IMG/VR virus record: IMGVR_UViG_3300030616_000089
Location: 1-21,127 of that record
DNA: 21,127 bases
Direction: 5' to 3' (one strand)
Source: a virus
Made by a program: the position numbers and the translations under genes. Positions within the stretch are counted from its first letter, which is position 1. Every line of letters starts with the position of its first letter. The notes under the pieces were generated by a model, which saw only the letters and a program-made list of their open reading frames with translations, searched no databases and was not told the origin of the DNA. Positions 280 through 21,127 of this stretch are shown here, one piece after another.

Positions 280-704
280 TTTTGTTTCTCACTCTCCATT
301 AAATCTTCCGTCTTTAAATTTAATTTTTTTTCTTTATTTAATTCCCTTTCAAATTTCTTTGCTTCTAAATGTATTTTAGCTAATTCTATTCCTTTACTTT
401 TATTAGGGTTATCTTTTTGTGCTTTAATGCTTTCTCGTATTTCCTTATCTGAACATTTCTCATATCTTTTAAGAATCTCTGGACATCTTAAAATTAAAGT
501 TTTGTCTGAATTTAACATAACAATTCCAAATTCTGATTGTAAAACCATGTGATATGCACACATAGGAAGAAAAGTATTCAATTCCATTTCCTTTGTATTG
601 TTTGGAAAAACTATTTTCCCTGATTCTGTTATAGAAACAAGAGGAACTTCAACTTGTGAAAAACATTTTCTTTTACAATTAGGAATTATACATTCGTATT
701 TCAT
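276..704 (-). CDS. Putative zinc-binding small protein
   Basis: A 142-residue protein I do not recognise. Cysteines at 5, 10 and 14, followed by C49 and H52 (MCAYH), suggest a zinc-binding N-terminal half of about 55 residues. The C-terminal third (from about residue 85) is very rich in Lys and Glu and probably forms a long helix. It ends in ESEKQK, a variant of the ESEK tail seen on the hendecad cassettes, and this tail again encodes the ribosome binding site of the next gene. Its ATG overlaps the stop of the 701-937 cassette gene (ATGA), so the two are translationally coupled. A DNA- or RNA-binding role would fit a zinc protein in an early viral operon, but that is a guess. Confidence 0.75.
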   Translation of the reverse strand: MKYECIIPNCKRKCFSQVEVPLVSITESGKIVFPNNTKEMELNTFLPMCAYHMVLQSEFGIVMLNSDKTLILRCPEILKRYEKCSDKEIRESIKAQKDNPNKSKGIELAKIHLEAKKFERELNKEKKLNLKTEDLMESEKQK

Positions 705-937
705 TTCTCACTCTCCTCAATTAATTTATACTTTCTTCCATTATGTTCAATTATCTCTGGAATTTCATCTGGAATTTCATCTGGCTCAGCATTTATCTTT
801 TCACATTCTTCTTGATATTTCTTATAAGCTGGTTGTTGAACTTTCTTATATTTCTCATAAGCTTGTTGTTCAACTTTCTTATATTTCTCCAAAGCTAATT
901 CTTTTCTTTGTTTTTTTGTAAGTTTTTGTTTTTTCAT
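701..937 (-). CDS. Hendecad-repeat cassette protein, isolated copy with 2 internal repeats
   Basis: A 78-residue member of the cassette family that also fills 3111-5539. It has the fixed basic head (KKQKLTKKQRKELAL), two internal 11-residue repeats of the pattern AYxKYxKVxxP, a terminal repeat with a single Cys (YQEECEKI), and the fixed tail (PDEIPEIIEHNGRKYKLIE). It carries one small variation, a doubled PDEI element in the tail. No signal peptide or membrane segment is present, so it should be cytoplasmic. It is the first gene of its operon: a TATA box lies 26 nt upstream of the ATG, so the mRNA is probably leaderless here. The stop overlaps the next ATG. Function unknown. Confidence 0.8.
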   Translation of the reverse strand: MKKQKLTKKQRKELALEKYKKVEQQAYEKYKKVQQPAYKKYQEECEKINAEPDEIPDEIPEIIEHNGRKYKLIEESEK

Positions 938-1984: not shown

Positions 1985-2905
1985 CTACTTTATATATAAA
2001 GCTGTTTTGTCCTCTCTATTGGAATGAGTATAATTGTTTATTTCTATTTTCTCCGCATTTTTAGCACTTTTTTTTGTACTTTTTTGTAATATGTCTGGAT
2101 TACCCTGTTTAGTATCATATTCTTTTAAATATTTAATTGGTAATAGTTTATAATGATTTCCATCAAAAACTAGGAATTTATCTTTATCTAAATCTAATAC
2201 ACTACTTCCTAATTCAACACCTTTATAGCTTAAACAAGTCTCCTTTACTTTGCTTCCATTTATAAAATCTGCTAATGTACTTTTTCCATAGATGAAAATG
2301 CTTAATTTTGCAGAGATATATTTTTTAAAATTCTCTGGAACTCCAGACAGAATTAAAACATTATTGTTATGATATATTAATCTTAATGTTTTCTCAATTA
2401 ATTTCCTTTTTTTCCTATCTTCTAAATCAAAGAGATTAAAAAACTCATCTAACACAATAACCGAACCTCTAATTTTTTCTAATTCTTCTATTGAATTAAT
2501 TTTAATATCATTTACCGATTTTTTCAATCCATAAGTATAAAGATTAAAAGAAAAGTCCTTTTGTAATTCAGTAAGTAAGTAATAAATTAAATTACTTTTT
2601 CCACAATTAGCATCTCCCATAATTCCCATAATAGCTGGTTTAGATAAGAGTTTTGGTATGCTTATTTTGTAATTGTTTTCTATAAATTCTATTTTCATTT
2701 TGTCGTATTTTTCTCCAGAGATTTCTTTTACTTGTTCTTTCATATTATCTCTTACTTCTTGTATTTTTTCTATTAATTGATTCTTATTCTCCATATAACT
2801 TATGTTGTTATCTATATTTGCTTCAATATCAAATAAATCACAATTTTCTTTTAATTCTTTTTTTATGAAATCTTTTAGATATTGTTTATGTGTTTCTGTT
2901 AGCAT
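1985..2905 (-). CDS. P-loop ATPase (AAA-like)
   Basis: A 306-residue NTPase. The Walker A motif GDANCGKS is at residues 97-104 and a Walker B motif (VIVLDE) is at about 149-154. A later hydrophobic strand (VLILSGVP, about 195) could hold a sensor residue. The first 90 residues are helical and charged; the C-terminal 60 residues are polar and probably flexible. The family cannot be named with certainty. It is not a ParA (no KGGxGKT) and not the terminase. Roles such as DNA translocation, replication-initiator loading or virion assembly are all possible. The ribbon-helix-helix gene lies 5 nt upstream in the same operon, so the two may work together as a DNA-binding protein and an ATPase. The gene is last in the 6411-1985 operon. 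The upstream sequence is A-rich with no strong Shine-Dalgarno. Confidence 0.8.
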   Translation of the reverse strand: MLTETHKQYLKDFIKKELKENCDLFDIEANIDNNISYMENKNQLIEKIQEVRDNMKEQVKEISGEKYDKMKIEFIENNYKISIPKLLSKPAIMGIMGDANCGKSNLIYYLLTELQKDFSFNLYTYGLKKSVNDIKINSIEELEKIRGSVIVLDEFFNLFDLEDRKKRKLIEKTLRLIYHNNNVLILSGVPENFKKYISAKLSIFIYGKSTLADFINGSKVKETCLSYKGVELGSSVLDLDKDKFLVFDGNHYKLLPIKYLKEYDTKQGNPDILQKSTKKSAKNAEKIEINNYTHSNREDKTALYIK

Positions 2906-2910
2906 TTTTT

Positions 2911-3114
2911 TTATATTTCTAAAGTTTTTATTTTGCTAATCGCTGTATCTTTTTTAATTTCTTCTTTTTCTTTTGTATCAACAGGTTTTTCCTTTAACAA
3001 ATCAAGTAAAGCCTCATTTAAACTACTAAAACCCATATCTATCTTATGGTATTCCAGCCTTTTTTTCAATTCTGGAGACACAAATATTGGTTTAAATTTT
3101 GTTTTCATTTTCAT
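2911..3114 (-). CDS. Ribbon-helix-helix-like DNA-binding protein
   Basis: A 67-residue protein. Residues 8-40 have the layout of a ribbon-helix-helix (CopG/Arc-like) domain: a short strand (FKPIFVS), a helix (PELKKRLEYHKI), a turn and a second helix (SSLNEALLDLL). A charged tail follows. Proteins of this size and fold normally bind operators as dimers, so it is a candidate repressor or a partner of the downstream ATPase. Its ATG overlaps the stop of the 3111-3329 cassette (ATGA) and uses the ribosome binding site encoded in that tail. The tight coupling places it in the same operon as the cassette array. Confidence 0.7.
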   Translation of the reverse strand: MKMKTKFKPIFVSPELKKRLEYHKIDMGFSSLNEALLDLLKEKPVDTKEKEEIKKDTAISKIKTLEI

Positions 3115-3329
3115 TTCTCACCCTCCTCAATTAATTTATACTTTCTTCCATTATGTTCAATTATCATTTCATCTGGCTCAGCATTTATCTTTCTACATTC
3201 TTTTAAATATTTCTTACCAGCTAAATCTAGAACTTTCAAATATTTCTTCCAAGCTAATTCTTTAACTTTCTCATATTCCTTCCAAACTAAATCTTTTCTT
3301 TGTTCTTTTGTGAGTTTTTGTTTTTTCAT
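3111..3329 (-). CDS. Hendecad-repeat cassette protein, copy with 2 internal repeats
   Basis: A 72-residue cassette protein, last of the tandem array. It has the basic head, two internal 11-residue repeats (WKEYEKVKELA and WKKYLKVLDLA), a terminal repeat with Cys (LKECRKI), and a shortened tail in which the PDEIPE element is reduced to PDEM before IIEHNGRKYKL. Repeat positions 2, 5 and 8 are Trp or Gly, Tyr and Val, consistent with an 11-residue helical periodicity. The start overlaps the stop of the 3326-3586 copy and its own stop overlaps the ribbon-helix-helix start. Confidence 0.8.
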   Translation of the reverse strand: MKKQKLTKEQRKDLVWKEYEKVKELAWKKYLKVLDLAGKKYLKECRKINAEPDEMIIEHNGRKYKLIEEGEK

Positions 3330-3586
3330 TTCTCACCCTCAATTAATTTATACTTTCTTCCATTATGTTCAATTATCTCTGGAATTTCATCTGGCTCAGA
3401 ATCTATCTTTTCACATTCTTTCTCATATTCCTCATAAGCAGGGACTGCAACTTTCTCAAATTTCTTCCAAGATAATGCTTGAGCTTTCTCATGTTCATTC
3501 AAAGCTGGGGCTATAACTTTCTCATATTTCTCCAAAGCTAATTTTTTTCTTTGTTTTTTTGTGAGTTTTTGTTTTGTCATTTTCAT
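3326..3586 (-). CDS. Hendecad-repeat cassette protein, copy with 3 internal repeats
   Basis: An 86-residue cassette protein. The head starts MKMTKQKLTKKQRK, with a second possible ATG two codons in. I keep the first because it overlaps the previous stop as ATGA. Three internal repeats include a divergent one (ALNEHEKAQAL) and a following SWKKFEKVAVP in which Tyr is replaced by Phe. The terminal repeat has the Cys, and the tail is the IIEHNGRKYKLIE type. Divergence inside individual repeats shows that the copies are old enough to drift and are not an assembly duplication. Confidence 0.8.
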   Translation of the reverse strand: MKMTKQKLTKKQRKKLALEKYEKVIAPALNEHEKAQALSWKKFEKVAVPAYEEYEKECEKIDSEPDEIPEIIEHNGRKYKLIEGEK

Positions 3587-3840
3587 TTCTCACTCTCCAT
3601 TATTCTTTTATATCTAATTCCATTATGTTCAATTATCTCTGGAATTTCATCTGGCTCAGAATCTATCTTTTTACATTCTTCTAAATATTTCCTATAAACA
3701 GGGACTATAAATTTTTTATATTTCTTCCAAGCTAGTTTTCTAAATTTTTCATATTCCTTCCAAGCTGGTTTTCTAAATTTCTCATATTCCTTCCAAGCTA
3801 ATTCTTTTCTTTGTTTTTTTGTGAGTTTTTGTTTTTTCAT
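3583..3840 (-). CDS. Hendecad-repeat cassette protein, KF-type repeats
   Basis: An 85-residue cassette protein with three internal repeats in which the usual YEKV is replaced by YEKF (WKEYEKFRKPA twice in succession, then WKKYKKFIVP). The consecutive near-identical repeats indicate duplication of a 33-bp unit within this gene. The tail is the variant IIEHNGIRYKRIMESEK. Coupled by ATGA overlaps at both ends. No membrane segment or signal peptide. Confidence 0.8.
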   Translation of the reverse strand: MKKQKLTKKQRKELAWKEYEKFRKPAWKEYEKFRKLAWKKYKKFIVPVYRKYLEECKKIDSEPDEIPEIIEHNGIRYKRIMESEK

Positions 3841-4103
3841 TTCAAATCCTCCTCTAAATCTATCTTTTCACATTCTTCTTGATATTTTTCCCAAGCGGAG
3901 TCTTTAACTTTTTCATATTCATTCAAAGCAGGGTCTATAACTTTCTCATATTTCTTATAAGCAGGGACTGCAACTTTTTCATATTTCTCATAAGCTAATT
4001 CTTTAACTTTCTCATATTTCTTATAAGCTAGTTGTCTAACTTTTTCATATTCATTCAAAGCTAATTCTTTTCTTTGTTTTTTTGTGAGTTTTTGTTTTTT
4101 CAT
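3837..4103 (-). CDS. Hendecad-repeat cassette protein with 5 internal repeats and EEDLK tail
   Basis: An 88-residue cassette protein with five internal repeats and a different tail: after the terminal CEKI it ends directly in DLEEDLK and lacks the HNGRKYKL element. The DNA of this tail (GAGGAGGATTTGAAATGA) is the same 18-nt ending used by the unrelated-looking genes at 1-279 and 11716-11943 and by the cassette at 9579-9713. It provides an AGGAGG ribosome binding site and the ATGA coupling for the next gene, so the ending behaves as an exchangeable module. Confidence 0.8.
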   Translation of the reverse strand: MKKQKLTKKQRKELALNEYEKVRQLAYKKYEKVKELAYEKYEKVAVPAYKKYEKVIDPALNEYEKVKDSAWEKYQEECEKIDLEEDLK

Positions 4104-4426
4104 TTCTCACCCTCAATTAATTTATACTTTCTTCCATTATGTTCAATTATCTCTGGAATTTCATCTGGCTCAGAATCTATCTTTTTATATTCTTCTTTAT
4201 ATTTCTCCAAAGCTAATTCTCTAACTTTCTTATATTTCTTATAAGCTAAATCTCGAACTTTCTCATATTTCTTCCAAGCTGGTTGTTTCACTTTTTCATA
4301 TTTCTTCAAAGCTTGTTGTTCAACTTTCTCATATTCCTCATAAGCAGGGACTGCAACTTTCCAATATTCCTCCAAAGCTAAATCTTTTCTTTGTTCTTTT
4401 GTGAGTTTTTGTTTTGTCATTTTCAT
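4100..4426 (-). CDS. Hendecad-repeat cassette protein, longest copy (108 residues)
   Basis: The longest cassette of the array, with the MKMTKQKL head, five internal repeats and a terminal repeat in which the usual Cys is Tyr (KEEYKKI). The first repeat has Trp at the position normally taken by Glu (EEYWKVAVP), also seen in the copy at 4683-4940, showing that those two share an N-terminal part. The tail is the IIEHNGRKYKLIE type. ATGA overlaps at both ends. Confidence 0.8.
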   Translation of the reverse strand: MKMTKQKLTKEQRKDLALEEYWKVAVPAYEEYEKVEQQALKKYEKVKQPAWKKYEKVRDLAYKKYKKVRELALEKYKEEYKKIDSEPDEIPEIIEHNGRKYKLIEGEK

Positions 4427-4686
4427 TTCTCACTCTCCATTATTCTTTTATATCTAATTCCATCCTGTTCAATTATCTCTGGAATTTCATCTGGCTCAGA
4501 ATCTATCTTTTTATATTCTTCTTGATATTTCTCATAAGCGGGGGCTATAACTTTCACATATTTCTCATAAGCTAATTCTTTAACTTTCTCATATTCCTCA
4601 TAAGCGGGGGCTATAACTTTCTCATATTTCTCCAAAGCTAATTTTTTTCTTTGTTTTTTTGTAAGTTTTTGTTTTGTCATTTTCAT
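4423..4686 (-). CDS. Hendecad-repeat cassette protein, copy with 3 internal repeats
   Basis: An 87-residue cassette protein with the MKMTKQKL head, three internal repeats (two of them ending VIAP) and a terminal repeat with Tyr in place of Cys. The tail is the EQDGIRYKRIMESEK variant, shared with the next copy upstream, so tails and heads do not co-vary along the array. ATGA overlaps at both ends. Confidence 0.8.
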   Translation of the reverse strand: MKMTKQKLTKKQRKKLALEKYEKVIAPAYEEYEKVKELAYEKYVKVIAPAYEKYQEEYKKIDSEPDEIPEIIEQDGIRYKRIMESEK

Positions 4687-5243
4687 TTCTCACTCTCCAT
4701 TATTCTTTTATATCTAATTCCATCCTGTTCAATTATCTCTGGAATTTCATCTGGCTCAGAATCTATCTTTTTACATTCTTCCTCATATTTATTATAAGCT
4801 AAATCTATAACTTTCAAATATTTCTCCCAAGCTGGTTGTTTAACTTTTTTATATTTCTTATAAGCTTGTTGTTCAACTTTCCAATATTCCTCCAAAGCTA
4901 AATCTTTTCTTTGTTCTTTTGTAAGTTTTTGTTTTGTCATTTCTCGCCCCCCCTTTAATTTCTTCAAACAATCATCCAAATCTTTGAATTGAATTATGTT
5001 TTCTTTAGGTTTAGGAGTTTCCCATTTTTCACCAGTAGAATCCTCATAATAAACCACAATTCTGTTTTCATCAAATTTTCTCCTTACCCAAAAATCATTA
5101 GAATTCTCCCAATAAACTTGATTTCCATTTTCATCAAACTTTCTCTTTATCCAAAAACCAGTAGAATCCTCCCAATAAACTACATGTCCTTTACTATCAT
5201 AAATACTTGTTATTCCGTTTTCTTTTTCTATTTTGTATTTCAT
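4683..5243 (-). CDS. Fusion: three tryptophan/DENG-type repeats joined to a hendecad cassette through a G7 run
   Basis: A 186-residue reading frame. Residues 1-101 hold three repeats of about 21 residues with the pattern VxYxEDSTGxWxxRKFDENGN, similar to small repeat proteins common in tailed phages. From Met102 (ATG at 4940-4938) it continues in frame as a normal cassette (TKQKLTKEQRKDLALEEYW..., three internal repeats, EQDGIRYKRI tail). The junction is a run of seven G on the minus strand (C7 at 4947-4953). With six G the first part would end as GGEK followed by TGA, overlapping the cassette ATG as ATGA, exactly as at every other junction in this array. The fusion is therefore either real and recent, a slippage site, or a one-base sequencing error. 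An independent start at 4940 is also likely to be used. Confidence 0.75.
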   Translation of the reverse strand: MKYKIEKENGITSIYDSKGHVVYWEDSTGFWIKRKFDENGNQVYWENSNDFWVRRKFDENRIVVYYEDSTGEKWETPKPKENIIQFKDLDDCLKKLKGGREMTKQKLTKEQRKDLALEEYWKVEQQAYKKYKKVKQPAWEKYLKVIDLAYNKYEEECKKIDSEPDEIPEIIEQDGIRYKRIMESEK

Positions 5244-5539
5244 TCCTCACTCTCCATTAATTTATACTTTCTTCCATTATATTCAATTATCTTTGGAATT
5301 TCATCTGGAATTTCATCTGGCTCAGAATCTATCTTTTTACATTCTTCTTGATATTTCTCATAAGCTGGTTGTCTAACTTTCTCATATTCCTCATAAGCAG
5401 GGTCTGCAACTTTCTCATATTCCTCATAAGCGGGGGCTATAACTTTTTCATATTTCTTATAAGCTAATTCTTTAACTTTCTCATATTCCTCCAAAGCTAA
5501 ATCTTTTCTTTGTTCTTTTGTAAGTTTTTGTTTTTTCAT
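5240..5539 (-). CDS. Hendecad-repeat cassette protein, first of the array, 4 internal repeats
   Basis: A 99-residue cassette protein opening the tandem array. I start it at the ATG at 5539 because the head then matches the other copies (MKKQKLTKEQRKDLAL) and GGTGAT, a good Shine-Dalgarno, lies just upstream over the previous stop codon. An upstream in-frame TTG would add four residues. Four internal repeats (including VIAPAYEEYEKVADPAYEE) are the clearest example of the 11-residue period. The tail has the doubled PDEI element as in 701-937 and ends YNGRKYKLMESEE. Confidence 0.8.
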   Translation of the reverse strand: MKKQKLTKEQRKDLALEEYEKVKELAYKKYEKVIAPAYEEYEKVADPAYEEYEKVRQPAYEKYQEECKKIDSEPDEIPDEIPKIIEYNGRKYKLMESEE

Positions 5540-8576: not shown

Positions 8577-9427
8577 TTTAAACTCCTTTTTGTTAATTTT
8601 TGAGAAATCTTAACCATAGTTTCTAAAAAAATATTTTTATCTTTAAAATAAAATAAATAAGGTTTATTTGGTTTTTCTGCTTCGTATTGTTTTGTTGTCA
8701 GTTCTATATAAGCACTTGGAGATAAATTAAACCCTGTTTTTTTACTTATACAATCCAATTTTAAAAGGTTTCTTATGTCTATTTCTTTGTCTTTTTCCAT
8801 TAAATAAAATCTTATCAATCCTTTCTTTTTCTTTGTTAAAACCATAGCATTTTGATTTATTGATTTATTAGAAGTTAATATTTTAATTCCATCAGATAAA
8901 TTTATTAATTGTTCTTTTTTCAAATAACCATTTTTTATAAATTCTTCAAAATCAGAAGAATTAAAATCAAAATCTAATTTTAAAAATACTTGATTTGAAT
9001 TATCTTCATAAATAACTCTTTTATTGAACGGCTTATTAAATCCTTTTTCTTTTTTGTATTCTTCTATTTTATTTAAAATCTCTGTTGCTTTTTTCTTATT
9101 TATTACTCCGTTGTTTAAATCTGTTTGTAATTCTTGGAAAAAATCTTCGTTTATTATTTTCTGTTCTAAACAACAATAAGCACTTGTCACCAATTGCCTA
9201 TTTAGGTTTGAATTATCAATTAAATCCTTGTCAGCATATTCTAAAAGCCCTGTATCTTCTATAAGATTAAAAGCTGTTTTATTATCTTGGGGGGTATTTG
9301 TATCTATTTCTTTGTGTATTATATCCCAAAAATAAACCTCTTTTTCTGTTTCAATTTCCTTTAATTTATCTGAAAGATTTTCTAAAATTGCTTTAATAGT
9401 GTTGTTTATTATTTCTTTTGTTTTCAT
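8573..9427 (-). CDS. Large early hypothetical protein
   Basis: A 284-residue protein that I cannot place in a family. The N-terminal third is helical (IIHKEIDTNTPQDN, then SAYCCLEQKI). The middle contains a Lys-rich helix (KKKATEILNKIEEYKKEKGF), and the C-terminal half looks like a mixed alpha/beta domain (VFLKLDFDF, LIRFYLMEKDKEI, SAYIELTTKQY). There is no Walker motif, zinc cluster or membrane segment. It is the largest gene of the 10033-6459 operon and is translated from the tail of the short cassette at 9424-9582 (ATGA). Confidence 0.75.
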   Translation of the reverse strand: MKTKEIINNTIKAILENLSDKLKEIETEKEVYFWDIIHKEIDTNTPQDNKTAFNLIEDTGLLEYADKDLIDNSNLNRQLVTSAYCCLEQKIINEDFFQELQTDLNNGVINKKKATEILNKIEEYKKEKGFNKPFNKRVIYEDNSNQVFLKLDFDFNSSDFEEFIKNGYLKKEQLINLSDGIKILTSNKSINQNAMVLTKKKKGLIRFYLMEKDKEIDIRNLLKLDCISKKTGFNLSPSAYIELTTKQYEAEKPNKPYLFYFKDKNIFLETMVKISQKLTKRSLK

Positions 9428-9582
9428 TTTTGTTTCTCACTCTCCTCAATTAATTTATACTTTCTTCCATTATATTCAATTATCTTTGGAATTTCCTCTA
9501 AATCTATCTTTTTACATTCTTCCTTATATTTCTCCCAAGCTAAATTTTTTCTTTGTTCTTTTGTGAGTTTTTGTTTTGTCAT
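9424..9582 (-). CDS. Minimal hendecad cassette, no internal repeat (52 residues)
   Basis: A cassette copy reduced to its fixed parts: the head MTKQKLTKEQRKNLAWEKY joins directly to the terminal KEECKKI, then a shortened IPKIIEYNGRKYKLIEESEKQK tail. It shows that the repeats between head and tail are optional and behave as inserted units. ATGA overlaps at both ends, with AGGAGG of the previous tail as ribosome binding site. Confidence 0.75.
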   Translation of the reverse strand: MTKQKLTKEQRKNLAWEKYKEECKKIDLEEIPKIIEYNGRKYKLIEESEKQK

Positions 9583-9713
9583 TTCAAATCCTCCTCTAAA
9601 TCTATCTTTTTACATTCTTCTTGATATTTCTCATAAGCTTGTTGTTCATCTTTCACATAATCCTTCAAAGCTAATTTTTTTCTTTGTTCTTTTGTGAGTT
9701 TTTGTTTATTCAT
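9579..9713 (-). CDS. Short hendecad cassette with one internal repeat and EEDLK tail (44 residues)
   Basis: Head MNKQKLTKEQRKKLALKDY, one repeat (VKDEQQA), the terminal YEKYQEECKKI and the EEDLK tail, identical in DNA to the tails at 1-18 and 3837-3854. It starts by ATGA overlap with the 9710-9886 gene. Together with the 9424-9582 copy it forms a two-cassette insertion in an otherwise unrelated operon. Confidence 0.75.
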   Translation of the reverse strand: MNKQKLTKEQRKKLALKDYVKDEQQAYEKYQEECKKIDLEEDLK

Positions 9714-9886
9714 TTTAAAACCTTTGTTGAGTTTTTAAATCTATTTCTATCAAATAAAGGATTTTCTTGTTTAAAAAACTCGCATAAATCGCTTAAAAAA
9801 TTACTATTTATAAGGTTTATTTGTCCTTTTATAGTATTTTCTTTAATTAATTTGGCTATTTTTATAAAGTGTTTTTTAGTCATCAT
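9710..9886 (-). CDS. Small phage-type protein (MTKKHF family)
   Basis: A 58-residue protein, MMTKKHFIKIAKLIKE at the start and EFFKQENPLFDRNRF near the end. This start and the ENPxFDRxRF ending are a pattern that I recognise from many small proteins of tailed phages, usually of 50-70 residues and unknown function. There are two adjacent ATG codons (9886 and 9883). The stop overlaps the start of the 9579-9713 cassette. Confidence 0.75.
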   Translation of the reverse strand: MMTKKHFIKIAKLIKENTIKGQINLINSNFLSDLCEFFKQENPLFDRNRFKNSTKVLK

Positions 9887-9898
9887 TTTATAAACTGC

Positions 9899-10033
9899 TT
9901 ATGCTATAATCTTTAATTCTACATTAGGTAATAAATCCATAATAGCATAATTATTATTTTTACTTAACTCTATTTTATTTAATTCTATTTTTCTAAGTAA
10001 GTTAAACTTACATAGCTTATATTTTTTCTTCAT
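9899..10033 (-). CDS. Possible small protein (44 residues)
   Basis: A frame encoding MKKKYKLCKFNLLRKIELNK and ending MDLLPNVELKIIA. It is basic at the N-terminus, with no motif recognised. It is the first frame after the dyad cluster at 10079-10203 and would head the 10033-6459 operon. A weak TATA-like AAATAAAAGG lies about 37 nt upstream. The Shine-Dalgarno is poor. Evidence is limited to position and direction. Confidence 0.45.
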   Translation of the reverse strand: MKKKYKLCKFNLLRKIELNKIELSKNNNYAIMDLLPNVELKIIA

Positions 10034-10078
10034 TTTGTTCTTTTGACTTCTTAATGGTGAGCCAATAACCTTTTATTT

Positions 10079-10152
10079 TGTCACAGATTAAGAAACTTAA
10101 TCTTTTTGTGTGATTGTGAAGGTTTTAGTTTATGATGTGACAGCAAAACCTT
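10079..10152. other. Interleaved inverted repeats, possible pseudoknot or operator/origin element
   Basis: TGTCACA (10079-10085) pairs with TGTGACA (10136-10142), and AAGGTTTT (10119-10126) pairs with AAAACCTT (10145-10152). The two stems interleave, so as RNA they could form an H-type pseudoknot. Nested inside is a third, perfect hairpin, AGATTAAG-AAA-CTTAATCT (10085-10103), which shares one base with the first arm. It lies just upstream of the 10033-6459 operon. The same dyads could instead be protein-binding sites on DNA. Confidence 0.5.
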
Positions 10153-10179
10153 AAAAATCTGCCTTTTTTTTTGAGTATA

Positions 10180-10203
10180 AACAGGAGTTTTAAAACTCCT
10201 GTT
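10180..10203. repeat. Perfect 24-bp palindrome
   Basis: AACAGGAGTTTT followed by its exact reverse complement, 24 bp without a mismatch, lies 23 nt downstream of the 10227-10529 stop codon. It may be that gene's terminator hairpin, although no T-run follows it directly on the minus strand, or an operator for a dimeric regulator. Confidence 0.55.
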
Positions 10204-10226
10204 CGGCTTGAAAAGAGATTATAAAC

Positions 10227-10529
10227 TTATTTATTCTCTAAATACCCCTTTTTAATTACATTTGAATTAAATTTATTGACTGCATTTTGCAAGTTCCTTA
10301 AATCTTCTATATTATTACAATAGGACTTAATAAAATCAATACTACAACAGATAAACTTATTATTATTATTCTTAATCTCTGTTTTAATTTCTGTTTTTAT
10401 TTTCATTTTTATGTGTGCTTTTAATTGTTCTTTTATTAGTGCTTTTACTTGCTTTTTTACTTGTACTTTTTCTGTTTCTTTTTCTGTTTCTTTTTCCGTG
10501 TTCCGTGTGTTTTGTTGTGTTGTTGTCAT
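10227..10529 (-). CDS. Low-complexity helical protein, first leftward gene
   Basis: A 100-residue protein. Residues 1-20 are polar (TTTQQNTRNTEKETEKETEK); residues 21-52 are an alternating Lys/Ile/Glu helix with short repeats (KKQVKALIKEQ, then IKTEI twice). An NNNN linker leads to a small C-terminal segment with FICCSIDFIKSYC. It is the gene nearest the divergent control region and has its own TATA box, so it may be the first gene expressed. The repeated EKET and KTEI units suggest replication slippage. No function can be assigned. Confidence 0.6.
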   Translation of the reverse strand: MTTTQQNTRNTEKETEKETEKVQVKKQVKALIKEQLKAHIKMKIKTEIKTEIKNNNNKFICCSIDFIKSYCNNIEDLRNLQNAVNKFNSNVIKKGYLENK

Positions 10530-11215: not shown

Positions 11216-11674
11216 ATGAAATTGCTGCATATCCCTAAAACAGGGGGAACCTCATTACTTGTTTCTGGAATTCCTGGAGGGCATCACATCACTTATAAGC
11301 CAGGAGAAAAATATATTACAATTATTAGGGACCCAGTAGATTGGACACTAAGTTATTTTCAAGAACAGACAGAGAGAAAAAATATTCGTTTGGATCAATG
11401 GCTAAAAGAAGAGTTTTGTAATTTTCAAACAAAGTGGTTGGCTAAAAAAATTCTGGGAAAAAGTAAAGTAAATAGAAAAGTACTAAACGAGGTAATAGAT
11501 ATTTTAAAAAAAGATTTTAAAGTTTTAGTTACATCAAAACTCCAGGACTTTACAAAGGTTCATGTAAACAAAGCTAGAAAAAAATATAGTCTCCTAGAGG
11601 GAGAAAAGGAGATGATACTTGAGAGAAATAATTTAGATCGGAAATTATATAAGTGGGCTATTACTAAAGAATAG
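11216..11674 (+). CDS. Compact sulfotransferase (PAPS-dependent family)
   Basis: A 152-residue protein that should transfer sulfate from PAPS to a hydroxyl, most likely on a carbohydrate. The 5'-phosphosulfate loop HIPKTGGTS is at residues 5-13, and the 3'-phosphate motif IIRDPVDWTLSYF (Arg38, Ser46) follows. NFQTKWLA (about 69-76) and the final NLDRKLYKWA match the later landmarks of the sulfotransferase-2-like group. It is much shorter than usual family members, with only about 25 residues between the two PAPS motifs, so it may be a minimal form. The start at 11216 gives a leaderless mRNA from the 11188 TATA box. It is the first rightward protein gene. A link to modifying the glycans of the sequon-rich surface protein at 18853 is inference; changing the host surface is equally possible. 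Confidence 0.8.
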   Translation: MKLLHIPKTGGTSLLVSGIPGGHHITYKPGEKYITIIRDPVDWTLSYFQEQTERKNIRLDQWLKEEFCNFQTKWLAKKILGKSKVNRKVLNEVIDILKKDFKVLVTSKLQDFTKVHVNKARKKYSLLEGEKEMILERNNLDRKLYKWAITKE

Positions 11675-11683
11675 TAATAAAGG

Positions 11684-11691
11684 TTTAAATA
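11684..11691 (+). promoter_or_regulatory. TATA box for the 11716 operon
   Basis: TTTAAATA preceded by an AAAGG purine element, centred about 28 nt upstream of the ATG at 11716, predicting a very short or absent leader. Confidence 0.6.
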
Positions 11692-11715
11692 CTTAATATA
11701 TTATATAAAATTGAA

Positions 11716-11943
11716 ATGACAGAACTAAAAACATTAAAGGAGATTAATGTAGTATGTCCGGAGTGTTTCAATAATTTTGGTTTATATTTTTCTTTTGAAA
11801 ATAAACCAACAGAACTAAAAGCCGAAGCAATCAAGTGGATAAAAGAAGATATTAAAATATTTGAAAGTGATGGTGGTAGTGATTGGTTGCAGATTGAGAG
11901 ATGGATGAAAAGATTAAACATCACAGAGGAGGATTTGAAATGA
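11716..11943 (+). CDS. Small CxxC protein, mosaic paralog of 1-279
   Basis: A 75-residue protein beginning MTELKTLKEINVVCPECFNN, with one CPEC knuckle, and ending RWMKRLNITEEDLK. Three blocks of near-identical DNA are shared with the leftward gene at 1-279: about 20 nt after the start, about 28 nt in the middle and about 27 nt at the end. The intervening sequence is unrelated. The ending is the same EEDLK module used by two hendecad cassettes and supplies AGGAGG for the next ATG. Possible metal binding; function unknown. Confidence 0.75.
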   Translation: MTELKTLKEINVVCPECFNNFGLYFSFENKPTELKAEAIKWIKEDIKIFESDGGSDWLQIERWMKRLNITEEDLK

Positions 11944-12164
11944 CATTAAAAGATAAAAGGATTAATAGAAATGATAATAAGATATTAGATAGATATTCTT
12001 ATTTTGAAAAAGATGTAAAAAAAGCAGTTGAGGAATTTGTTAAGGAATTGAAACAAAGAGTTTCAGATTTATTTATTAAAGATGATGCTTCTGAAATGTT
12101 AGTAAATAGTATAGTAGACAAACTAAACAAAGATAAATTTGGTTTTGATGGGAGTGAGAAATGA
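11940..12164 (+). CDS. Small charged helical protein
   Basis: A 74-residue protein starting at the ATG that overlaps the previous stop (ATGA); an upstream in-frame ATG at 11901 would lie within the previous gene and lacks a good binding site. It is highly charged, with a long amphipathic helix (DVKKAVEEFVKELKQRVSDLF) and a second helix (EMLVNSIVDKLNK). It ends in GSEK, the other ending used by cassette genes, and again overlaps the next start. Function unknown. Confidence 0.65.
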   Translation: MTLKDKRINRNDNKILDRYSYFEKDVKKAVEEFVKELKQRVSDLFIKDDASEMLVNSIVDKLNKDKFGFDGSEK

Positions 12165-14073: not shown

Positions 14074-14299
14074 AAGAATAAGAATAAAGTATGCTTTTAA
14101 ATTTGGCAAACTAGAACATTTTTTCGGAAGATTATTAGGTTTAACTCTTTTTCTTAATTGTGTTTATTTAGTTCTTTTTTTTGATAATAAATTTTTACAG
14201 ATTTTTTCTATCATAAATTTTTTAATTTGGTTAGGATATATACTCTCTCACACAACAGAAAAAAAACTTTTTGGAAAATATAGATGGAGTAAAAAATGA
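14063..14299 (+). CDS. Two-helix membrane protein, holin-like
   Basis: A 78-residue protein with a basic N-terminus (FRRIRIKYAFKFGK), two hydrophobic segments (LLGLTLFLNCVYLVLFF, about residues 23-39, and FLQIFSIINFLIWLGYIL, about 44-61) and a basic tail. Size and topology resemble holins, but similar small membrane proteins of other functions exist and no lysin gene is seen nearby. Start is ATG at 14063 with AAGGAA upstream; a second ATG follows directly. Its stop overlaps the terminase start. Confidence 0.6.
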   Translation: MMFRRIRIKYAFKFGKLEHFFGRLLGLTLFLNCVYLVLFFDNKFLQIFSIINFLIWLGYILSHTTEKKLFGKYRWSKK

Positions 14300-15720
14300 G
14301 AACAAAAGAAGAATGTTTACAAGGAATGAATCTAGTAGAATTTATAACAAGATGTAGAATAGATTTTAAATTTTTTTGTGAAAGATTACTTGGGCTTACA
14401 GAATATGGAGGAATTCATAGATTCCAATTAGAGTGGTTTTATCTTATACAAAATAATGATAGAGTTATAATTGAAGCTCCATCTGGTTTTAGTAAGACAA
14501 CAATCGTAGGAGTAGCTTATCCTCTTTGGTTAATCTTTAATTATGATAGAAGAAAAATTCTTTTAGTTTCAAAAACAATGCCTCAAGCAAAAGATAATAT
14601 GCTTGGGCAGATTAGAGAATATATTGAGGAGAATGAAATGTTAAGACATCTAATTCCAAAAGATGCAGATCGAACATGGAACCAGTCACAACTTAGAACT
14701 TCAAATTCTTGTTCTATAATCAATAGACCATACTCTGTAAATATTAAATCTTATAGGGCAGATTATATTCTTCTAGACGAACTTGATTCTTATGAAGATA
14801 CAAGCATTTATTTTGATTATGTTGTTTCAAGAGTTAATCCAGGAGGGAAAATTGTGGGAATTTCTACTCCAGAACATGAAGAGAGATTAATTGGATTAAT
14901 TAGAGCAAAGAAATTAAAAGAGTATGTTTTAAGAAAATATGTGGCTATTGTTAATTGCAAAGTTCCAGGAGATATATCTACAGGAGAATCAATTTGGAAA
15001 GAGAGGTTTTCATTAAAATATTTATTGAAATTAAAAAACGAACAAGGAGAACAATTTTTTCAAAAAAATTATATGTGCAATGTCAAATTAGGAGGAGAGG
15101 ATGCAATTTTCAGACTTCCTCACATCTTGGAATGTTTTGATGCAAAAAGAAAATTTACAAGTCTTAAAGAAAAAAATGATGGGTTCATAATTCTTGGAGC
15201 AGATTTTGCAATCTCTTCTGGACCAAAAGCAGATTATGATGCTTATTGTATTATAGAAAAAGTAGGAAATAATTATATTTTAAAACATTTAGAAAAATGG
15301 AAAGGAATTCCAGTTCCAGAAAAAATACAAAGAATATCAGAACTAATGCACGAGTATAATGTTGATGCTATTATAGCAGACGAATCAAATATTGGAAAAG
15401 AAGCTATTGATAGATTGCTAGCAAAAGGATATTATGTAGTTCCACAAAAATTTAGTTCAGAAGAAAGAAAAAAGATTTTAGTTACTTTAAAAAATATTCT
15501 TGAGTCTCATAAATTAATTATCCCAAGACATCCAGATGATGATTATGGATTAAGAATAGTAAATGAACTTGTTACTCAACTAACTGGATTTGAAGAAGAA
15601 GTGAGTGAAAAAACAAAACACAAACTTCTTGTATCAAAAGCAAGACATGATGATTTGGCTATTGCTACGGGGTTAGCAGTGAAATTAGGAACCGAACAGA
15701 TAACAGACTCTTTTTATTAG
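14296..15720 (+). CDS. terL: Terminase large subunit
   Basis: A 474-residue packaging motor and nuclease. The ATPase half has the P-loop APSGFSKTT (residues 61-69, Lys67), a Walker B YILLDE (157-162) and the coupling motif GKIVGISTP (184-192). The nuclease half has GADFA with Asp303, the ADES stretch with Asp362-Glu363, and ARHDDLA with Asp452-Asp453, as expected for the RNase H-like metal centre. The residue before the P-loop Lys is Ser where Gly is usual. The length is typical. It pumps genome DNA into the prohead through the portal encoded at 16277. No small terminase subunit is evident directly upstream; the winged-helix protein at 13258 could serve. The ATG overlaps the previous stop as ATGA. 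Confidence 0.95.
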   Translation: MRTKEECLQGMNLVEFITRCRIDFKFFCERLLGLTEYGGIHRFQLEWFYLIQNNDRVIIEAPSGFSKTTIVGVAYPLWLIFNYDRRKILLVSKTMPQAKDNMLGQIREYIEENEMLRHLIPKDADRTWNQSQLRTSNSCSIINRPYSVNIKSYRADYILLDELDSYEDTSIYFDYVVSRVNPGGKIVGISTPEHEERLIGLIRAKKLKEYVLRKYVAIVNCKVPGDISTGESIWKERFSLKYLLKLKNEQGEQFFQKNYMCNVKLGGEDAIFRLPHILECFDAKRKFTSLKEKNDGFIILGADFAISSGPKADYDAYCIIEKVGNNYILKHLEKWKGIPVPEKIQRISELMHEYNVDAIIADESNIGKEAIDRLLAKGYYVVPQKFSSEERKKILVTLKNILESHKLIIPRHPDDDYGLRIVNELVTQLTGFEEEVSEKTKHKLLVSKARHDDLAIATGLAVKLGTEQITDSFY

Positions 15721-15731
15721 ATTTCAAAACA

Positions 15732-18046: not shown

Positions 18047-18341
18047 AATAAGTTTATATTATGATGTAGAATGTAATGATTTAGTAACCCAAGAAATAGT
18101 TTTTGATCCAATCCCTGCAGGAGAAGTTACTAGAAAATCCTTATATTTAAAAAATGAATTAAATTATGATATAAAATATGAGATAGAATTAGTAGGAAAT
18201 TCAGTAGAGATTAAAAATAACAAGGGACTCTTAGCATTAAAAGATACAACAGAGATAATATTAGTATTCTCCCCAGAAAAAGAGATACGAGCCCCATTAG
18301 ATGTTCAATTAAAAATTAAAGTAAGCTATTTAGTAATATGA
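18036..18341 (+). CDS. Ig-like small virion protein
   Basis: A 101-residue, mostly beta protein. The pattern DPIPAGEVTRKSLYLKNELN with alternating hydrophobic strands, followed by TEIILVFSPEKEI and a final LKIKVSYLVI, resembles Ig-like (ASH/beta-sandwich) domains. Such domains are common in virion proteins and in archaeal surface proteins. The start overlaps the portal stop by 11 nt and uses GAGGAGG upstream. The ATGA overlap with the next gene places it in the virion operon. The fold is inferred from pattern. Confidence 0.65.
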   Translation: MENEISLYYDVECNDLVTQEIVFDPIPAGEVTRKSLYLKNELNYDIKYEIELVGNSVEIKNNKGLLALKDTTEIILVFSPEKEIRAPLDVQLKIKVSYLVI

Positions 18342-18856
18342 GCAATAACCTTTTACTACAATCAGTTGGAACAGGAACTACTAGTGGGAGTTCTACTCAA
18401 ACACTAGAGCAATTTTCTGGAAGCGATTGTTCTGGAAGTGACGGAGATGCTAATAGAGTTTTGACTACTTCAGGAGTTTCAGGTGCTTCTGGAGAGGTTA
18501 TGGTTGTAATGGATGGACAACTTTTGAGAAAGACTGACAAATATACTGTTTCTGGAGATGATATAACTTTTTTAGTTAAAGTATTTGATTCAAGTGGAAT
18601 AGATATTTTTTATGTTACTGGTTCAATTACTCAAACACTAGAGCAATTTTCTGGAAGCGATTGTTCTGGAAGTGATGGAGATGCTAATAGAGTTCTGACT
18701 ACTTCAGGAGTTTCAGGAGCTTCAGGAGAAATAATTATTGGAGTAGATGGGCAGATAATTAGAAAGACAGATAAATTTACTGTCTCTGGAGACGATGTTA
18801 CTTTCTTAATAAAAATATTTGATTCAAGTAAAATAGATATCTTTTATATAACATGA
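18338..18856 (+). CDS. Duplicated fibre-domain virion protein
   Basis: A 172-residue protein made of a short Ser/Thr/Gly-rich start and two copies of a 78-residue module. Each module begins TQTLEQFSGSDCSGSDGDAN, continues through VLTTSGVSGASGE and a VDGQLLRKTDKYTVSGDDITF strand pair, and ends KVFDSSGIDIFYVT. The second half of the module has the layout of phage tail/fibre beta domains (xVxVDGxLxxxxxYTVSGxxITF). It probably decorates the virion. Each module has one Cys. The gene overlaps the next start (ATGA), so it is co-translated with the large surface protein. Confidence 0.75.
   Translation: MSNNLLLQSVGTGTTSGSSTQTLEQFSGSDCSGSDGDANRVLTTSGVSGASGEVMVVMDGQLLRKTDKYTVSGDDITFLVKVFDSSGIDIFYVTGSITQTLEQFSGSDCSGSDGDANRVLTTSGVSGASGEIIIGVDGQIIRKTDKFTVSGDDVTFLIKIFDSSKIDIFYIT
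18395..18856 (+). repeat. Two tandem copies of a 234-bp module
   Basis: Copy 1 begins at 18395 and copy 2 at 18629, exactly 234 nt (78 codons) apart. The first roughly 100 nt are almost identical, and later parts have diverged mainly by substitutions, so the duplication is older than those in the next gene. Confidence 0.8.
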
Positions 18857-21127
18857 AAAAACTAATCCCTATAATATTGCTCGGAATATTCTTAATTTCT
18901 TTAGTTGGAGCAGATTATACTCCAACAGATAATTGGAATTTTCAAGATTATTATAATCTTTCAAATGTGAGTTATTTAGATACAAATTATTTAAATGTAG
19001 ATAATCCTTCAGAAGATGCTTGGATTATTAAGTACCAGAATATTTCAAATATCCCTACTTGTGGTGCTGGAGAACATTTAGATTTCGATGGTTCAACATT
19101 AAGTTGTACAGCAGATACAGGAGGAGGAAATGCTAGTTGGAATGAGAGTTATGCTGACACACTCTATGCAGACATCTCAGTTACTGGAGATAACTCAAGC
19201 TGGAATGAAACTTTAGCGGATACTTTATATCTTGGAATTGGGGATGAAGGAAATTTAGATGTTAATTCTTCAGATTATTGGGATGATATGAATACTATTA
19301 ATACTACTCAAATGGAAGATAATGGGGGGACTTTGAATATTTTAGAATCTTGGATTACTAGCTTTTTTAATACTTTATTTGGAGGAAAGAGTACAGATGA
19401 TTTGTCTGAAGGTTCTAGTAATTTTTATGATAACTCAAGCTGGAATGAAACTTTAGCAGATACTCTTTACGCAGACATCTCAGTTACTGGAGACAATTCA
19501 AGCTGGAATGAAAGTTATGCTGATACAAAGTATGTGGAAACAGAAACAGATCCTCAATGGAGTGCAAACTATTCTGCTCATAATGATAGTTGGAGTTCAA
19601 CTTACAATGTCACTTACGATGCTTATAACAATACTGGATTGATTAAGGATTGGAACGCAAGTGGATGGATTATTAATTGGAATGCTACAGGTTTGATTGC
19701 TAACTGGACTGCTGACTTTAGTGATTACTTTAGCAAAGCAGACATTATTGGATTTGGATATTGGAACGATACTCATGCAGGTTTCAATAAAACATACGCT
19801 GACACATTGTATGCAGACATCTCAGTTACTGGAGACAATTCAAGTTGGAATGAAAGTTATGCAGACACATTGTATGCTGGTAATGAATGGAACTATAATC
19901 AAACTGAAGCTGCTAATAGTTATGCGGATTCTAAGTTTTTTTCAAATATTACTAATTTTACAGGGACCCTTACAGATACTAAATATTGTACTTATGATTC
20001 TGGAGGAAACCAAATAGTATGTAATTCTGAAGGAGGGGGAAGTGATTATTATAATGGTACAGGAATAGAAATAAATGGCGACAATAATATTAGTGTTGTT
20101 TTAGCATATAGACTTCCTCAGAGTTGTAATGATGGAGAAATAGCAGAATATAATACTTCTAGTGGAGGGTGGGACTGTGCAATAGATAATTCTGCTGCTT
20201 CTGGTATGAGTAATTGGGTTGTTGCTGCAAATGATACTGGAGGAAGTTCTCAAATAACAGATGGAGAAACAGTAAGATTTGATGATGATGGGTCTTATAT
20301 AAATATTACCAGAAGTGGGGATAATATAATCATTTCTCTTTATGAAACTAAACTTAATGAAACTATAGAAGATTTAGATACAGACACTACTTATTCTGCT
20401 GGAACAGGATTAGAATTAAGTTCTACTACTTTCTCGGCAAATACAACTTACTTAGATGAAAATTATAAATTTACTCATTTCTCTAATTTTACTGATGATT
20501 TGTCTTATTATAATACTAGTGATTTTGATATTAATGATTATCCTACTCTTGCGGAAGTTTTAGGATTTGGATATTGGAACGATACTCATGCAGGTTTCAA
20601 TAAAACATACGCTGACACATTGTATGCAGACATCTCAGTTACTGGAGACAATTCAAGCTGGAATGAAAGTTATGCTGATACAAAGTATGTGGAAACAGAA
20701 ACAGATCCTCAATGGAGTGCAAACTATTCTGCTCATAATGATAGTTGGAGTTCAACTTACAATGTCACTTACGATGCTTATAACAATACTGGATTGATTA
20801 AGGATTGGAACGCAAGTGGATGGATTATTAATTGGAATGCTACAGGTTTGATTGCTAACTGGACTGCTGACTTTAGTGATTACTTTAGCAAAGCAGACAT
20901 TATTGGATTTGGATATTGGAACGATACTCATGCAGGTTTCAATAAAACATACGCTGACACATTGTATGCAGACATCTCAGTTACTGGAGACAATTCAAGT
21001 TGGAATGAAAGTTATGCTGATACAAAGTATGTGGAAACAGAAACAGATCCTCAATGGAGTGCAAACTATTCTGCTCATAATGATAGTTGGAGTTCAACTT
21101 ACAATGTCACTTACGATGCTTATAACA
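18853..21127 (+). CDS. Repetitive, sequon-rich secreted surface protein (adhesin/fibre), truncated by window end
   Basis: An open frame from the ATG at 18853 to the window end, at least 758 residues. Residues 1-20 are a signal peptide (KK, then LIPIILLGIFLISLVGA). The mature part is Ser/Thr/Asn/Asp/Tyr-rich and built from repeats such as SWNESYADTLYADISVTGDN and WNASGWIINWNATGLIANW. I count about 54 N-x-S/T sequons, roughly one per 14 residues, so the exported protein could be very heavily N-glycosylated. Repeats of the YADTLYA type recall phage tail-fibre repeats. It is co-translated with the fibre-domain gene (ATGA). A receptor-binding fibre or glycoprotein spike is the best reading; the signal peptide means that it passes through the host membrane, which is odd for an ordinary tail fibre. 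Confidence 0.8.
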   Translation, partial: MKKLIPIILLGIFLISLVGADYTPTDNWNFQDYYNLSNVSYLDTNYLNVDNPSEDAWIIKYQNISNIPTCGAGEHLDFDGSTLSCTADTGGGNASWNESYADTLYADISVTGDNSSWNETLADTLYLGIGDEGNLDVNSSDYWDDMNTINTTQMEDNGGTLNILESWITSFFNTLFGGKSTDDLSEGSSNFYDNSSWNETLADTLYADISVTGDNSSWNESYADTKYVETETDPQWSANYSAHNDSWSSTYNVTYDAYNNTGLIKDWNASGWIINWNATGLIANWTADFSDYFSKADIIGFGYWNDTHAGFNKTYADTLYADISVTGDNSSWNESYADTLYAGNEWNYNQTEAANSYADSKFFSNITNFTGTLTDTKYCTYDSGGNQIVCNSEGGGSDYYNGTGIEINGDNNISVVLAYRLPQSCNDGEIAEYNTSSGGWDCAIDNSAASGMSNWVVAANDTGGSSQITDGETVRFDDDGSYINITRSGDNIIISLYETKLNETIEDLDTDTTYSAGTGLELSSTTFSANTTYLDENYKFTHFSNFTDDLSYYNTSDFDINDYPTLAEVLGFGYWNDTHAGFNKTYADTLYADISVTGDNSSWNESYADTKYVETETDPQWSANYSAHNDSWSSTYNVTYDAYNNTGLIKDWNASGWIINWNATGLIANWTADFSDYFSKADIIGFGYWNDTHAGFNKTYADTLYADISVTGDNSSWNESYADTKYVETETDPQWSANYSAHNDSWSSTYNVTYDAYN
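20563..21127 (+). repeat. Tandem 342-bp repeat, with an earlier partial copy at 19471-19872
   Basis: The unit starting GGATTTGGATATTGG at 20563 repeats at 20905, exactly 342 nt (114 codons) later, and the second copy runs off the window. The same sequence is already present at 19471-19872, starting part-way through the unit. Copies are almost identical; one difference seen is a silent C/T in the AAGCTGG/AAGTTGG position. Each unit encodes 11 N-glycosylation sequons. Near-identity indicates recent duplication or ongoing gene conversion. Confidence 0.9.

What the first reader, a model, noticed from the sequence alone, without database searches (positions are those of the whole stretch)
3111..5539. 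A tandem, translationally chained array of 11-residue-repeat proteins
Eight paralogs in a row (plus three elsewhere) share a fixed basic head (QKLTKxQRKxLA), 0 to 5 internal copies of an 11-residue unit A-Y/W-xx-Y-E-K-V-xx-P/L, a terminal unit with a mostly conserved single Cys, and one of two tails. An 11-residue period is that of hendecad or amphipathic-helix repeats. Copy number varies per gene, repeats diverge inside genes, and heads and tails assort independently, so the array looks like a recombining protein-length generator. Similar EYEKV-type repeats occur, as I recall, in phage sequences without assigned function. What is gained by making many length variants from one mRNA is unexplained: hetero-oligomers, decoys against host defence or rulers are all possible.
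Basis: partly seen in the sequence, partly recalled or inferred. Interest (0 to 1): 0.7.

Follow-up and report, generated by a model that had tools for sequence, protein, structure and literature searches.

The report
Recombining array of helical-repeat virus genes
A virus of microbes carries eight near-copies of a small helix-repeat gene in a row, each ending in the signal that starts the next, and comparison with a sister virus shows that repeat numbers and gene ends are swapped at related loci; what the proteins do is not known.

Summary
Eight paralogs lie head to tail on the minus strand (3111-5539), with three more at 701-937, 9424-9582 and 9579-9713. They share a head, 0-5 internal 11-residue units and one of a few tails. 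Every junction in the array is a 4-nt ATGA overlap, and the last tail codons spell an SD-like site for the next gene. The same boundary sequences end unrelated genes.

A close relative (G001, IMGVR_UViG_3300028883_000134) shows recombination. The main array is unchanged (3 differences in 2429 nt). At the outlying loci, units differ by exact multiples of 33 nt (1 vs 2; 2 vs 9), one domain is inserted at two loci, and a neighbouring gene is replaced between shared boundaries. In the window, d, e, f and i show all four head/tail combinations.

Similar hendecad repeats occur in 22 other viral contigs, one repeat-bearing frame per fetched stretch. AlphaFold predicts helices plus a beta-hairpin. The paralogs matched no named family, solved-structure sequence or cultured-phage record.

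Most likely: an accessory (probably early) set of small helical proteins kept variable by recombination; function unproven. A bolder reading, diversifying selection on a frozen DNA backbone, is only hinted at and is not significant in the window alone.

The parts
5240..5539 (-). paralog c, 99 aa, 4 internal units, tail NGRKYKLMESEE; first gene of the array
4683..5243 (-). ORF of 186 aa: W/Y repeat domain (5243-4941) fused in frame to paralog d (4940-4683, 3 internal units, tail DGIRYKRIMESEK)
   Evidence: separate copy of the domain in G001
4423..4686 (-). paralog e, 87 aa, 3 internal units, no Cys; 3' end identical to d over 91 nt
4100..4426 (-). paralog f, 108 aa, 5 internal units, no Cys; modelled: helices 10-43 and 49-85, strands 93-96 and 99-102
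3837..4103 (-). paralog g, 88 aa, 5 internal units, short tail DLEEDLK; within G001 its counterpart has a second copy elsewhere (3 of 267 nt differ)
3583..3840 (-). paralog h, 85 aa, 3 internal units, tail NGIRYKRIMESEK
3326..3586 (-). paralog i, 86 aa, 3 internal units; head and first unit like e, 3' end identical to f over 86 nt
3111..3329 (-). paralog j, 72 aa, 2 internal units; last of the array, overlaps the next gene at 3114
701..937 (-). outlying paralog k, 78 aa, 2 internal units; the G001 counterpart has 9 units and an added C-terminal domain
9424..9582 (-). outlying paralog b, 52 aa, no internal unit; in G001 the head is cut by 12 nt and 117 nt are inserted before the last codons
9579..9713 (-). 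outlying paralog a, 44 aa, 1 internal unit; the G001 copy has one unit more (33 nt) and a 1-nt frameshift
3837..3854 (-). boundary sequence GAGGAGGATTTGAAATGA (SD-like GAGGAGG + stop/start); also at 1-18 and 9579-9596 on the minus strand and 11926-11943 on the plus strand
   Evidence: 4 matches, shuffle mean 0.00
3111..3125 (-). boundary sequence GAG(A/G)GTGAGAAATGA; also at 701, 3326, 3583, 4100, 4423, 4683 and (1 mismatch) 5240
   Evidence: 9 matches, two of them with 1 mismatch, shuffle mean 0.04; 8 of the 9 are at paralog ends, the ninth at 12150 (+)

Best explanation
A lineage-specific set of small, mostly helical proteins, made from one leftward accessory (probably early) transcript by stop-start (ATGA) translational coupling, with each gene's tail codons doubling as the ribosome-binding site of the next gene. 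The set arose by amplification of one 33-nt (11-residue) unit and one gene cassette. It stays variable by homologous recombination between units (changes of whole units) and between the shared gene boundaries (swaps of tails and whole genes). Shown: gene order, overlaps, shared boundaries, whole-unit length changes, domain insertion, gene replacement, four-combination mosaicism. Inferred: translation by re-initiation, early expression, helix-bundle assembly, and a role as host-facing accessory proteins (binding a host or defence protein).
For: Overlaps and embedded SD-like sequences at all array junctions. Boundary sequences reused at ends of unrelated genes in window and G001. Exact 33-nt and 231-nt unit differences, a 117-nt insertion and a replaced neighbour gene between two viruses whose long matching blocks are 98.5-99.5% identical, with one block of 1009 nt at 93% around locus a/b. 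The inserted domain occurs twice in G001 (124 nt identical) and not in the window. Four head/tail combinations in d, e, f, i. Codons fixed by position (K4 AAG in 14 of 14, A2 GCT in 29 of 29) although 11 other genes of the window use mixed codons, which argues for copying of one DNA unit. Helix plus beta-hairpin prediction, mean pLDDT 80.8. The array lies on the minus-strand arm, away from the terminase.
Against: No expression data. The promoter scan found no excess over shuffles (67 vs 68.5), so a single transcript is unproven. The main array did not change between the two viruses. Gene a in G001 is frameshifted and gene b has lost part of its head, so at least some copies look dispensable. 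No homolog gives a function. Unit numbers at a and k rest on metagenome assemblies, which can miscount repeats. The function half of this statement is inference; I put it at about 0.25 alone, the anatomy and recombination half at about 0.85.
Confidence: 0.5

Rival explanations
1. Near-neutral amplification: the repeats spread because AT-rich repeated DNA recombines easily in a tolerant accessory region, and most copies have little function.
For: Event count in the window is what neutrality predicts (9 synonymous and 31 nonsynonymous steps, 7.9 synonymous expected). Gene a is frameshifted and b has a damaged head in G001.
Against: All eight array genes are open in both viruses, with 3 mismatches in 2429 nt. 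A2, Y6, K8, V9 are held in 29, 29, 31 and 26 of 31 units. The same core motif recurs in 22 other viral contigs.
Confidence: 0.27
2. Length series or ruler/hetero-oligomer set: the point of the array is to make several lengths of one coiled coil at once.
For: Unit numbers 2-5 in the array, 0-9 with the outlying and G001 copies. The 3-4-4 spacing of Y6/V9/A2 is that of a hendecad coil. The f model superposes on a designed helical homo-oligomer (best Z 9.6, rmsd 2.7, 81 aligned). One repeat protein elsewhere, L041, matches tail tape-measure PHROGs (phrog_1272 E 1.3e-5, phrog_4070 E 4.5e-5), and L047 does so weakly (E 0.003-0.006).
Against: Lengths in the array are not graded (3 units in d, e, h and i). 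Z below about 13 for helical bundles may be only a common arrangement (note). The tape-measure matches may be due to helical, low-complexity composition. No oligomer could be modelled.
Confidence: 0.15
3. Modular recognition array under diversifying selection: unit DNA is homogenised while exposed residues are driven to change, as in HNWD NLR repeats of Podospora.
For: pN exceeds pS in 17 of 21 unit sets. Third codon positions are frozen in places (codon 10 of the window: 8 codons, third base A in 31 of 31; L037: 0 of 9 minor alleles at third positions). The cellular control L053 shows the opposite (pN/pS 0.24).
Against: Counting events: window alone 9 synonymous vs 7.9 expected, P 0.74. Nine sets pooled: 20 vs 26.3, P 0.10 (kappa 1) or 0.015 (kappa 2). 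With three more groups added: 29 vs 33.8, P 0.20 or 0.035. L050, L066, L068 and L072 go the other way. Sets are not all independent.
Confidence: 0.17
4. Diversity-generating retroelement target.
For: Variation is concentrated in the first two codon positions.
Against: No reverse transcriptase (PF00078) in 6 of 6 records tested, though all may be fragments. Third-position A is never changed at codon 10 and non-A bases vary, unlike adenine mutagenesis (recalled).
Confidence: 0.02

Closest known systems
Unnamed phage proteins with AEYEKV-type 11-residue repeats (22 IMG/VR contigs found here, e.g. L044, L041, L043, L047, L069)
   Same: Same unit A-x-x-x-Y-x-K-V-x-x-x, several to many units, helix predicted (L069 helix 75-166), variation mostly amino-acid changing
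   Different: One repeat-bearing frame per fetched stretch, in those read in full behind an N-terminal domain of their own; no tandem paralogs seen and no QKLTKxQRK head
HNWD NOD-like receptors of Podospora anserina (het-d, het-e; PMC12222747, abstract and outline read)
   Same: Highly alike repeats kept by concerted evolution, some sites hypervariable
   Different: WD40 beta-propeller repeats in a fungal immune receptor; diversifying selection reported there, only hinted at here
Borg amino-acid tandem repeats (PMC9879509, passages read)
   Same: Fast-changing in-frame repeats in an extrachromosomal element, unit lengths divisible by three
   Different: Borg units are mostly perfect at the DNA level and linked to disordered regions; these units average 74-75% identity and are predicted helical
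Mobile regulatory cassettes of T4-type phages (Arbiol et al. 2010; seen only as a reference-list entry; content recalled)
   Same: Short repeated sequences at gene borders that promote gene shuffling
   Different: Here the border is coding: tail codons, SD-like site, stop and start overlap

Membership tests
Hendecad helical repeat | 11-residue period with hydrophobic 3-4-4 spacing | tested here: met
   Y6, V9, A2 kept in 29, 26 and 29 of 31 units
Hendecad helical repeat | forms an oligomeric coiled coil | not testable with these tools
   only monomers could be predicted
AEYEKV-type phage repeat proteins | tandem units with conserved A2, Y6, K8, V9 | tested here: met
AEYEKV-type phage repeat proteins | single gene with an N-terminal domain of its own | tested here: not met
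   array of short genes with a basic head
Diversity-generating retroelement | reverse transcriptase nearby | tested here: inconclusive
   0 of 6 records, all possibly fragments
Diversity-generating retroelement | adenine-specific variation | tested here: not met
   third-position A constant in 31 of 31 at codon 10; other bases vary
Borg perfect tandem repeats | units identical at the DNA level | tested here: not met
   mean unit identity 0.749 within genes, 0.740 between
HNWD-like diversifying repeat array | excess of amino-acid change at exposed sites | tested here: inconclusive
Any Pfam, PHROGs, NCBIfam or PDB-sequence family | sequence match to a named family | tested here: not met
   f, g and the d ORF in Pfam: none reach a cut-off (best E 0.011; ArdA for g E 0.02, 16 of 27 bits). 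f, g, d ORF and j in PHROGs: best E 0.011, unknown function. f and g in NCBIfam: none at E 0.01. Profile A1 in PDB sequences: none at E 1. a, b, c, e, h, i and k were not scanned singly

The most novel reading that the evidence does not exclude
Prokaryotic viruses use hendecad repeats as a combinatorial recognition scaffold: recombination keeps the unit's DNA backbone alike while exposed residues are diversified by selection. In this lineage the scaffold has been cut into a co-translated battery of paralogs with exchangeable heads, unit numbers and tails, a virus-side counterpart of repeat-based immune receptors.
Probability: 0.15. Interest if true: 0.85.

Novelty: new variant of a known kind. 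Interest (0 to 1): 0.55.

Why it matters
It shows two viruses that differ at the same loci by whole units (2 or 9), by a domain present or absent, and by a replaced neighbouring gene, all joined at sequences that are at once protein tail, ribosome-binding site and stop/start. That suggests a simple rule by which small accessory genes can be swapped without breaking translation of an operon. It also points to a spread-out, unnamed group of viral hendecad proteins whose variation is mostly amino-acid changing; whether that is selection is directly testable with more genomes.

Tried and rejected
DGR: no reverse transcriptase in 6 of 6 records and the wrong base pattern. Antisense or other-frame coding: in the sets with the clearest pattern two of the three codon positions vary, so no other frame gives the usual third-position pattern. 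L054, the only other head-pattern hit: the matching frame is not a relative. L053, the only cellular hit of the YEKV pattern: the tail of a 515-residue frame with apparent membrane segments (my reading) and ordinary synonymous variation; used as a control. Relatives by terminase (L010-L015, TerL 44-74% identical): no array in 6 of 6 records, but five are 5-17 kb fragments. The search for related loci with the paralog alignment: 600 stretches matched a pattern, none confirmed, G001 included in the miss, so that tool is poor for these repeats. Relatives by the ATPase gene beside the array: only G001 again. Family searches of the N-terminal parts of six other repeat proteins: none at E 0.01. Whole repeat proteins do touch a few families: L044 passes the Pfam cut-offs of PSME4_C (26.2 vs 22.5 bits) and Protein_K (26.0 vs 25) and L043 that of Kazal_1 (21.5 vs 21), each with no single stretch passing, which I read as repeat artefacts; L041 matches phrog_12429 (E 1.4e-6, unknown) and tape-measure PHROGs. 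Fold searches: no Foldseek hit with E up to 0.001 for f (BFVD) or L069 (PDB). VIA matches for f (helical hairpins, among them Esx proteins, designed oligomers and T4 Vs.4 at Z 8.3, rmsd 6.2) are within what unrelated helical bundles give. Promoters: none above shuffles. No tRNA. tblastn in the phage collection filters low complexity, so its 'no match' for repeat proteins is weak. One search used a pattern with one N too many and wasted a scan; the corrected one was checked on the window first. In-print check: searches listed no paper on these repeats (by title and abstract start); most subscription papers and preprints are not held.

Rows dropped: unit sets used runs of at least 3 units, so L046, L052, L073 and L074 were left out, and L049/L051 (G001 itself) entered only as the 9-unit gene. 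L053 was kept out as control.
Full report
WHAT IS THERE. The window is a 21,127-base IMG/VR virus record. It has a tailed-virus terminase at 14296-15720 and two arms that read away from about 10.5-11 kb: small genes leftward; terminase and, by position, structural genes rightward (GC skew changes sign there). On the left arm, eight paralogs c-j run from 5539 to 3111, and a, b and k lie elsewhere on the same strand. The pattern for the head occurs 11 times and the two-unit pattern 10 times, with none in 100 shuffles. Each protein is M-x-KQKLTKxQRKx, then 0-5 units of 11 residues, a terminal unit with E/K-E-C/Y-x-K-I, and a tail. Cys is present in 9 of 11. I count three tail kinds rather than two. 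Paralog d is the C-terminal part of a 186-residue ORF whose first ~100 residues are W/Y repeats. A free copy of that domain exists in G001, and part of it matches Verrucomicrobia phage P8625 (49% identity over 59 residues).

HOW THE GENES ARE CHAINED. All seven junctions in the array and the one after it are ATGA overlaps. The bases before them, which encode ...ESEE...ESEK...EGEK or ...EEDLK, contain GGAGAG, GAGGGTGAG or GAGGAGG, so the tail codons are also a Shine-Dalgarno-like site. These boundary words recur far above chance (9 matches against 0.04 expected, 8 of them at paralog ends; 4 matches against 0.00). They, or close forms, also end genes unrelated to the paralogs, for example the ITEEDLK genes of the window and G001 and the KKKEESEK genes of G001. 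Re-initiation itself was not tested.

RECOMBINATION SEEN BETWEEN TWO VIRUSES. G001 (IMGVR_UViG_3300028883_000134, 24,519 bases) has a terminase 100% identical and long blocks at 98.5-99.5%, with one of 1009 nt at 93%. The main array differs at 3 of 2429 bases, all in gene e (two synonymous, one K to E), with no change in units. Differences between the two viruses cluster at 501-1500, 9001-10500, 11501-12000 and at 18001 to the end of the matched stretch at 18588; the first three hold genes k, a/b and an ITEEDLK gene. At a, G001 has exactly 33 nt more, and a 1-nt deletion that cuts the protein. At b, the head has lost 12 nt and 117 nt are inserted in frame just before the last codons. At k, G001 has 231 nt more (7 units), another linker before the same kind of hairpin tail, and the same inserted domain. 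The next gene (142 aa) is replaced there by one of 54 aa before both viruses rejoin at a shared boundary (gap lengths recounted). The inserted domain is found twice in G001, identical over 124 nt, and not in the window; a second g copy in G001 differs at 3 of 267 bases. Within the window, e and i share their 5' parts (0.99 over 72 nt) and d and f theirs (0.93), the cross pairs being 0.83-0.88, while d and e share tails (1.00 over 75 nt) and f and i theirs (1.00): all four combinations. Both assemblies agree on the 8-gene array, which argues against an artefact there; the unit numbers at a and k still need long reads, since such repeats can be misassembled from short reads (reported for another repeat gene in PMC12222747, abstract).

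THE UNIT. Over 31 units, A2, Y6, K8 and V9 are held in 29, 29, 31 and 26, with 3-4-4 spacing of A, Y, V. Synonymous choice is fixed by position: K at position 4 is AAG in 14 of 14 and at position 5 AAA in 17 of 17, while 11 other genes use AAA 303 and AAG 48 times (chance figures). This says the units descend from one DNA unit by copying. Unit identity is hardly higher within genes (0.749, 40 pairs) than between genes (0.740, 425 pairs), which fits exchange between genes. AlphaFold for f (11 sequences) gives helices 10-43 and 49-85 and strands 93-96 and 99-102, mean pLDDT 80.8, pTM 0.60.

ELSEWHERE. The two-unit pattern found 16 stretches in viral contigs (14 contigs, one of them G001) and 1 in cellular genomes; a second pattern added 9 contigs. 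Thus there are 22 contigs beside G001. Each of their fetched stretches, which are parts of the contigs, has one repeat-bearing open frame, against 10 in the G001 stretch L049. Outside the window the head was found only in G001. The tail motif occurs in four other contigs on different proteins, all four of which also have short tandem repeats of other kinds (L062, L063, L064, L065). One hendecad protein, L069, is predicted as one 92-residue helix behind a small domain (mean pLDDT 76.7, pTM 0.50).

VARIATION. In 17 of 21 unit sets pN exceeds pS; L050, L066, L068 and L072 do not. Third codon positions are often invariant where the first two vary (L037, L042, L043, L045, L048: no third-position alleles among 4-9; some of these are related to each other). 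Counting events rather than pairs is more sober: in the window 9 synonymous and 31 nonsynonymous steps, as expected under neutrality (7.9); nine sets pooled give 20 against 26.3 expected, P 0.10, or 0.015 with transitions weighted twofold. Adding the three groups found later gives 29 against 33.8, P 0.20 or 0.035; all 21 sets, not independent, give 38 against 48.4, P 0.05 or 0.003. The cellular control L053 (pN/pS 0.24) and the paralogous W/Y domains (pN 0.107, pS 0.192) show the ordinary pattern. I take this as a hint of relaxed or diversifying selection, not a demonstration.

FUNCTION. No Pfam, PHROGs, NCBIfam, PDB-sequence or cultured-phage match gives the paralogs a function. Position on the accessory arm, damaged outlying copies and rapid change suggest host-facing accessory proteins, probably helical bundles; this is inference. 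The host is unknown.

VERDICT. It is a new arrangement of an unnamed kind of viral repeat protein.

Noticed in passing
window 19371-21127: Four copies of a 260-nt stretch (68-100% alike) and a pair of 300-nt stretches 97% alike, 1155 nt apart, on the rightward arm: perhaps a repetitive surface or tail protein running off the end.
   Followed up: no
window 18338-18856: A 172-aa ORF made of two copies (85% at DNA level) of a SGSDGDANRV... domain; weak tail-fibre hit in PHROGs.
   Followed up: no
window 11216-11674: ORF with the motif HIPKTGGTS, which I recall from sulfotransferases; no family hit confirms it.
   Followed up: partly
L062, L063, L064, L065: The tail motif IIELNGKKYKLIE/V sits on unrelated viral proteins that all have short tandem repeats (GDARVS, NSSNGV, CTFKTGDS, NTGDW types). 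Unit alleles in L062 are only amino-acid changing (0 synonymous, 3 nonsynonymous), in L064 mostly (2 and 13), but L065 shows no such excess (pS 0.194, pN 0.183); L063 was not measured.
   Followed up: partly
window 1985-2905: 306-aa ORF with a Walker A-like GDANCGKSN, the second gene downstream of the array; only weak ATPase hits, and only G001 has a relative in viral contigs by this search.
   Followed up: partly
window 4941-5243; L036:9407-9724: W/Y repeat domain related to a hypothetical protein of Verrucomicrobia phage P8625 (49% over 59 residues, three places in that record).
   Followed up: partly
window 15719-15727; L035:2870-3301: G001 has about 430 nt more than the window just downstream of the terminase gene (block ends).
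   Followed up: no
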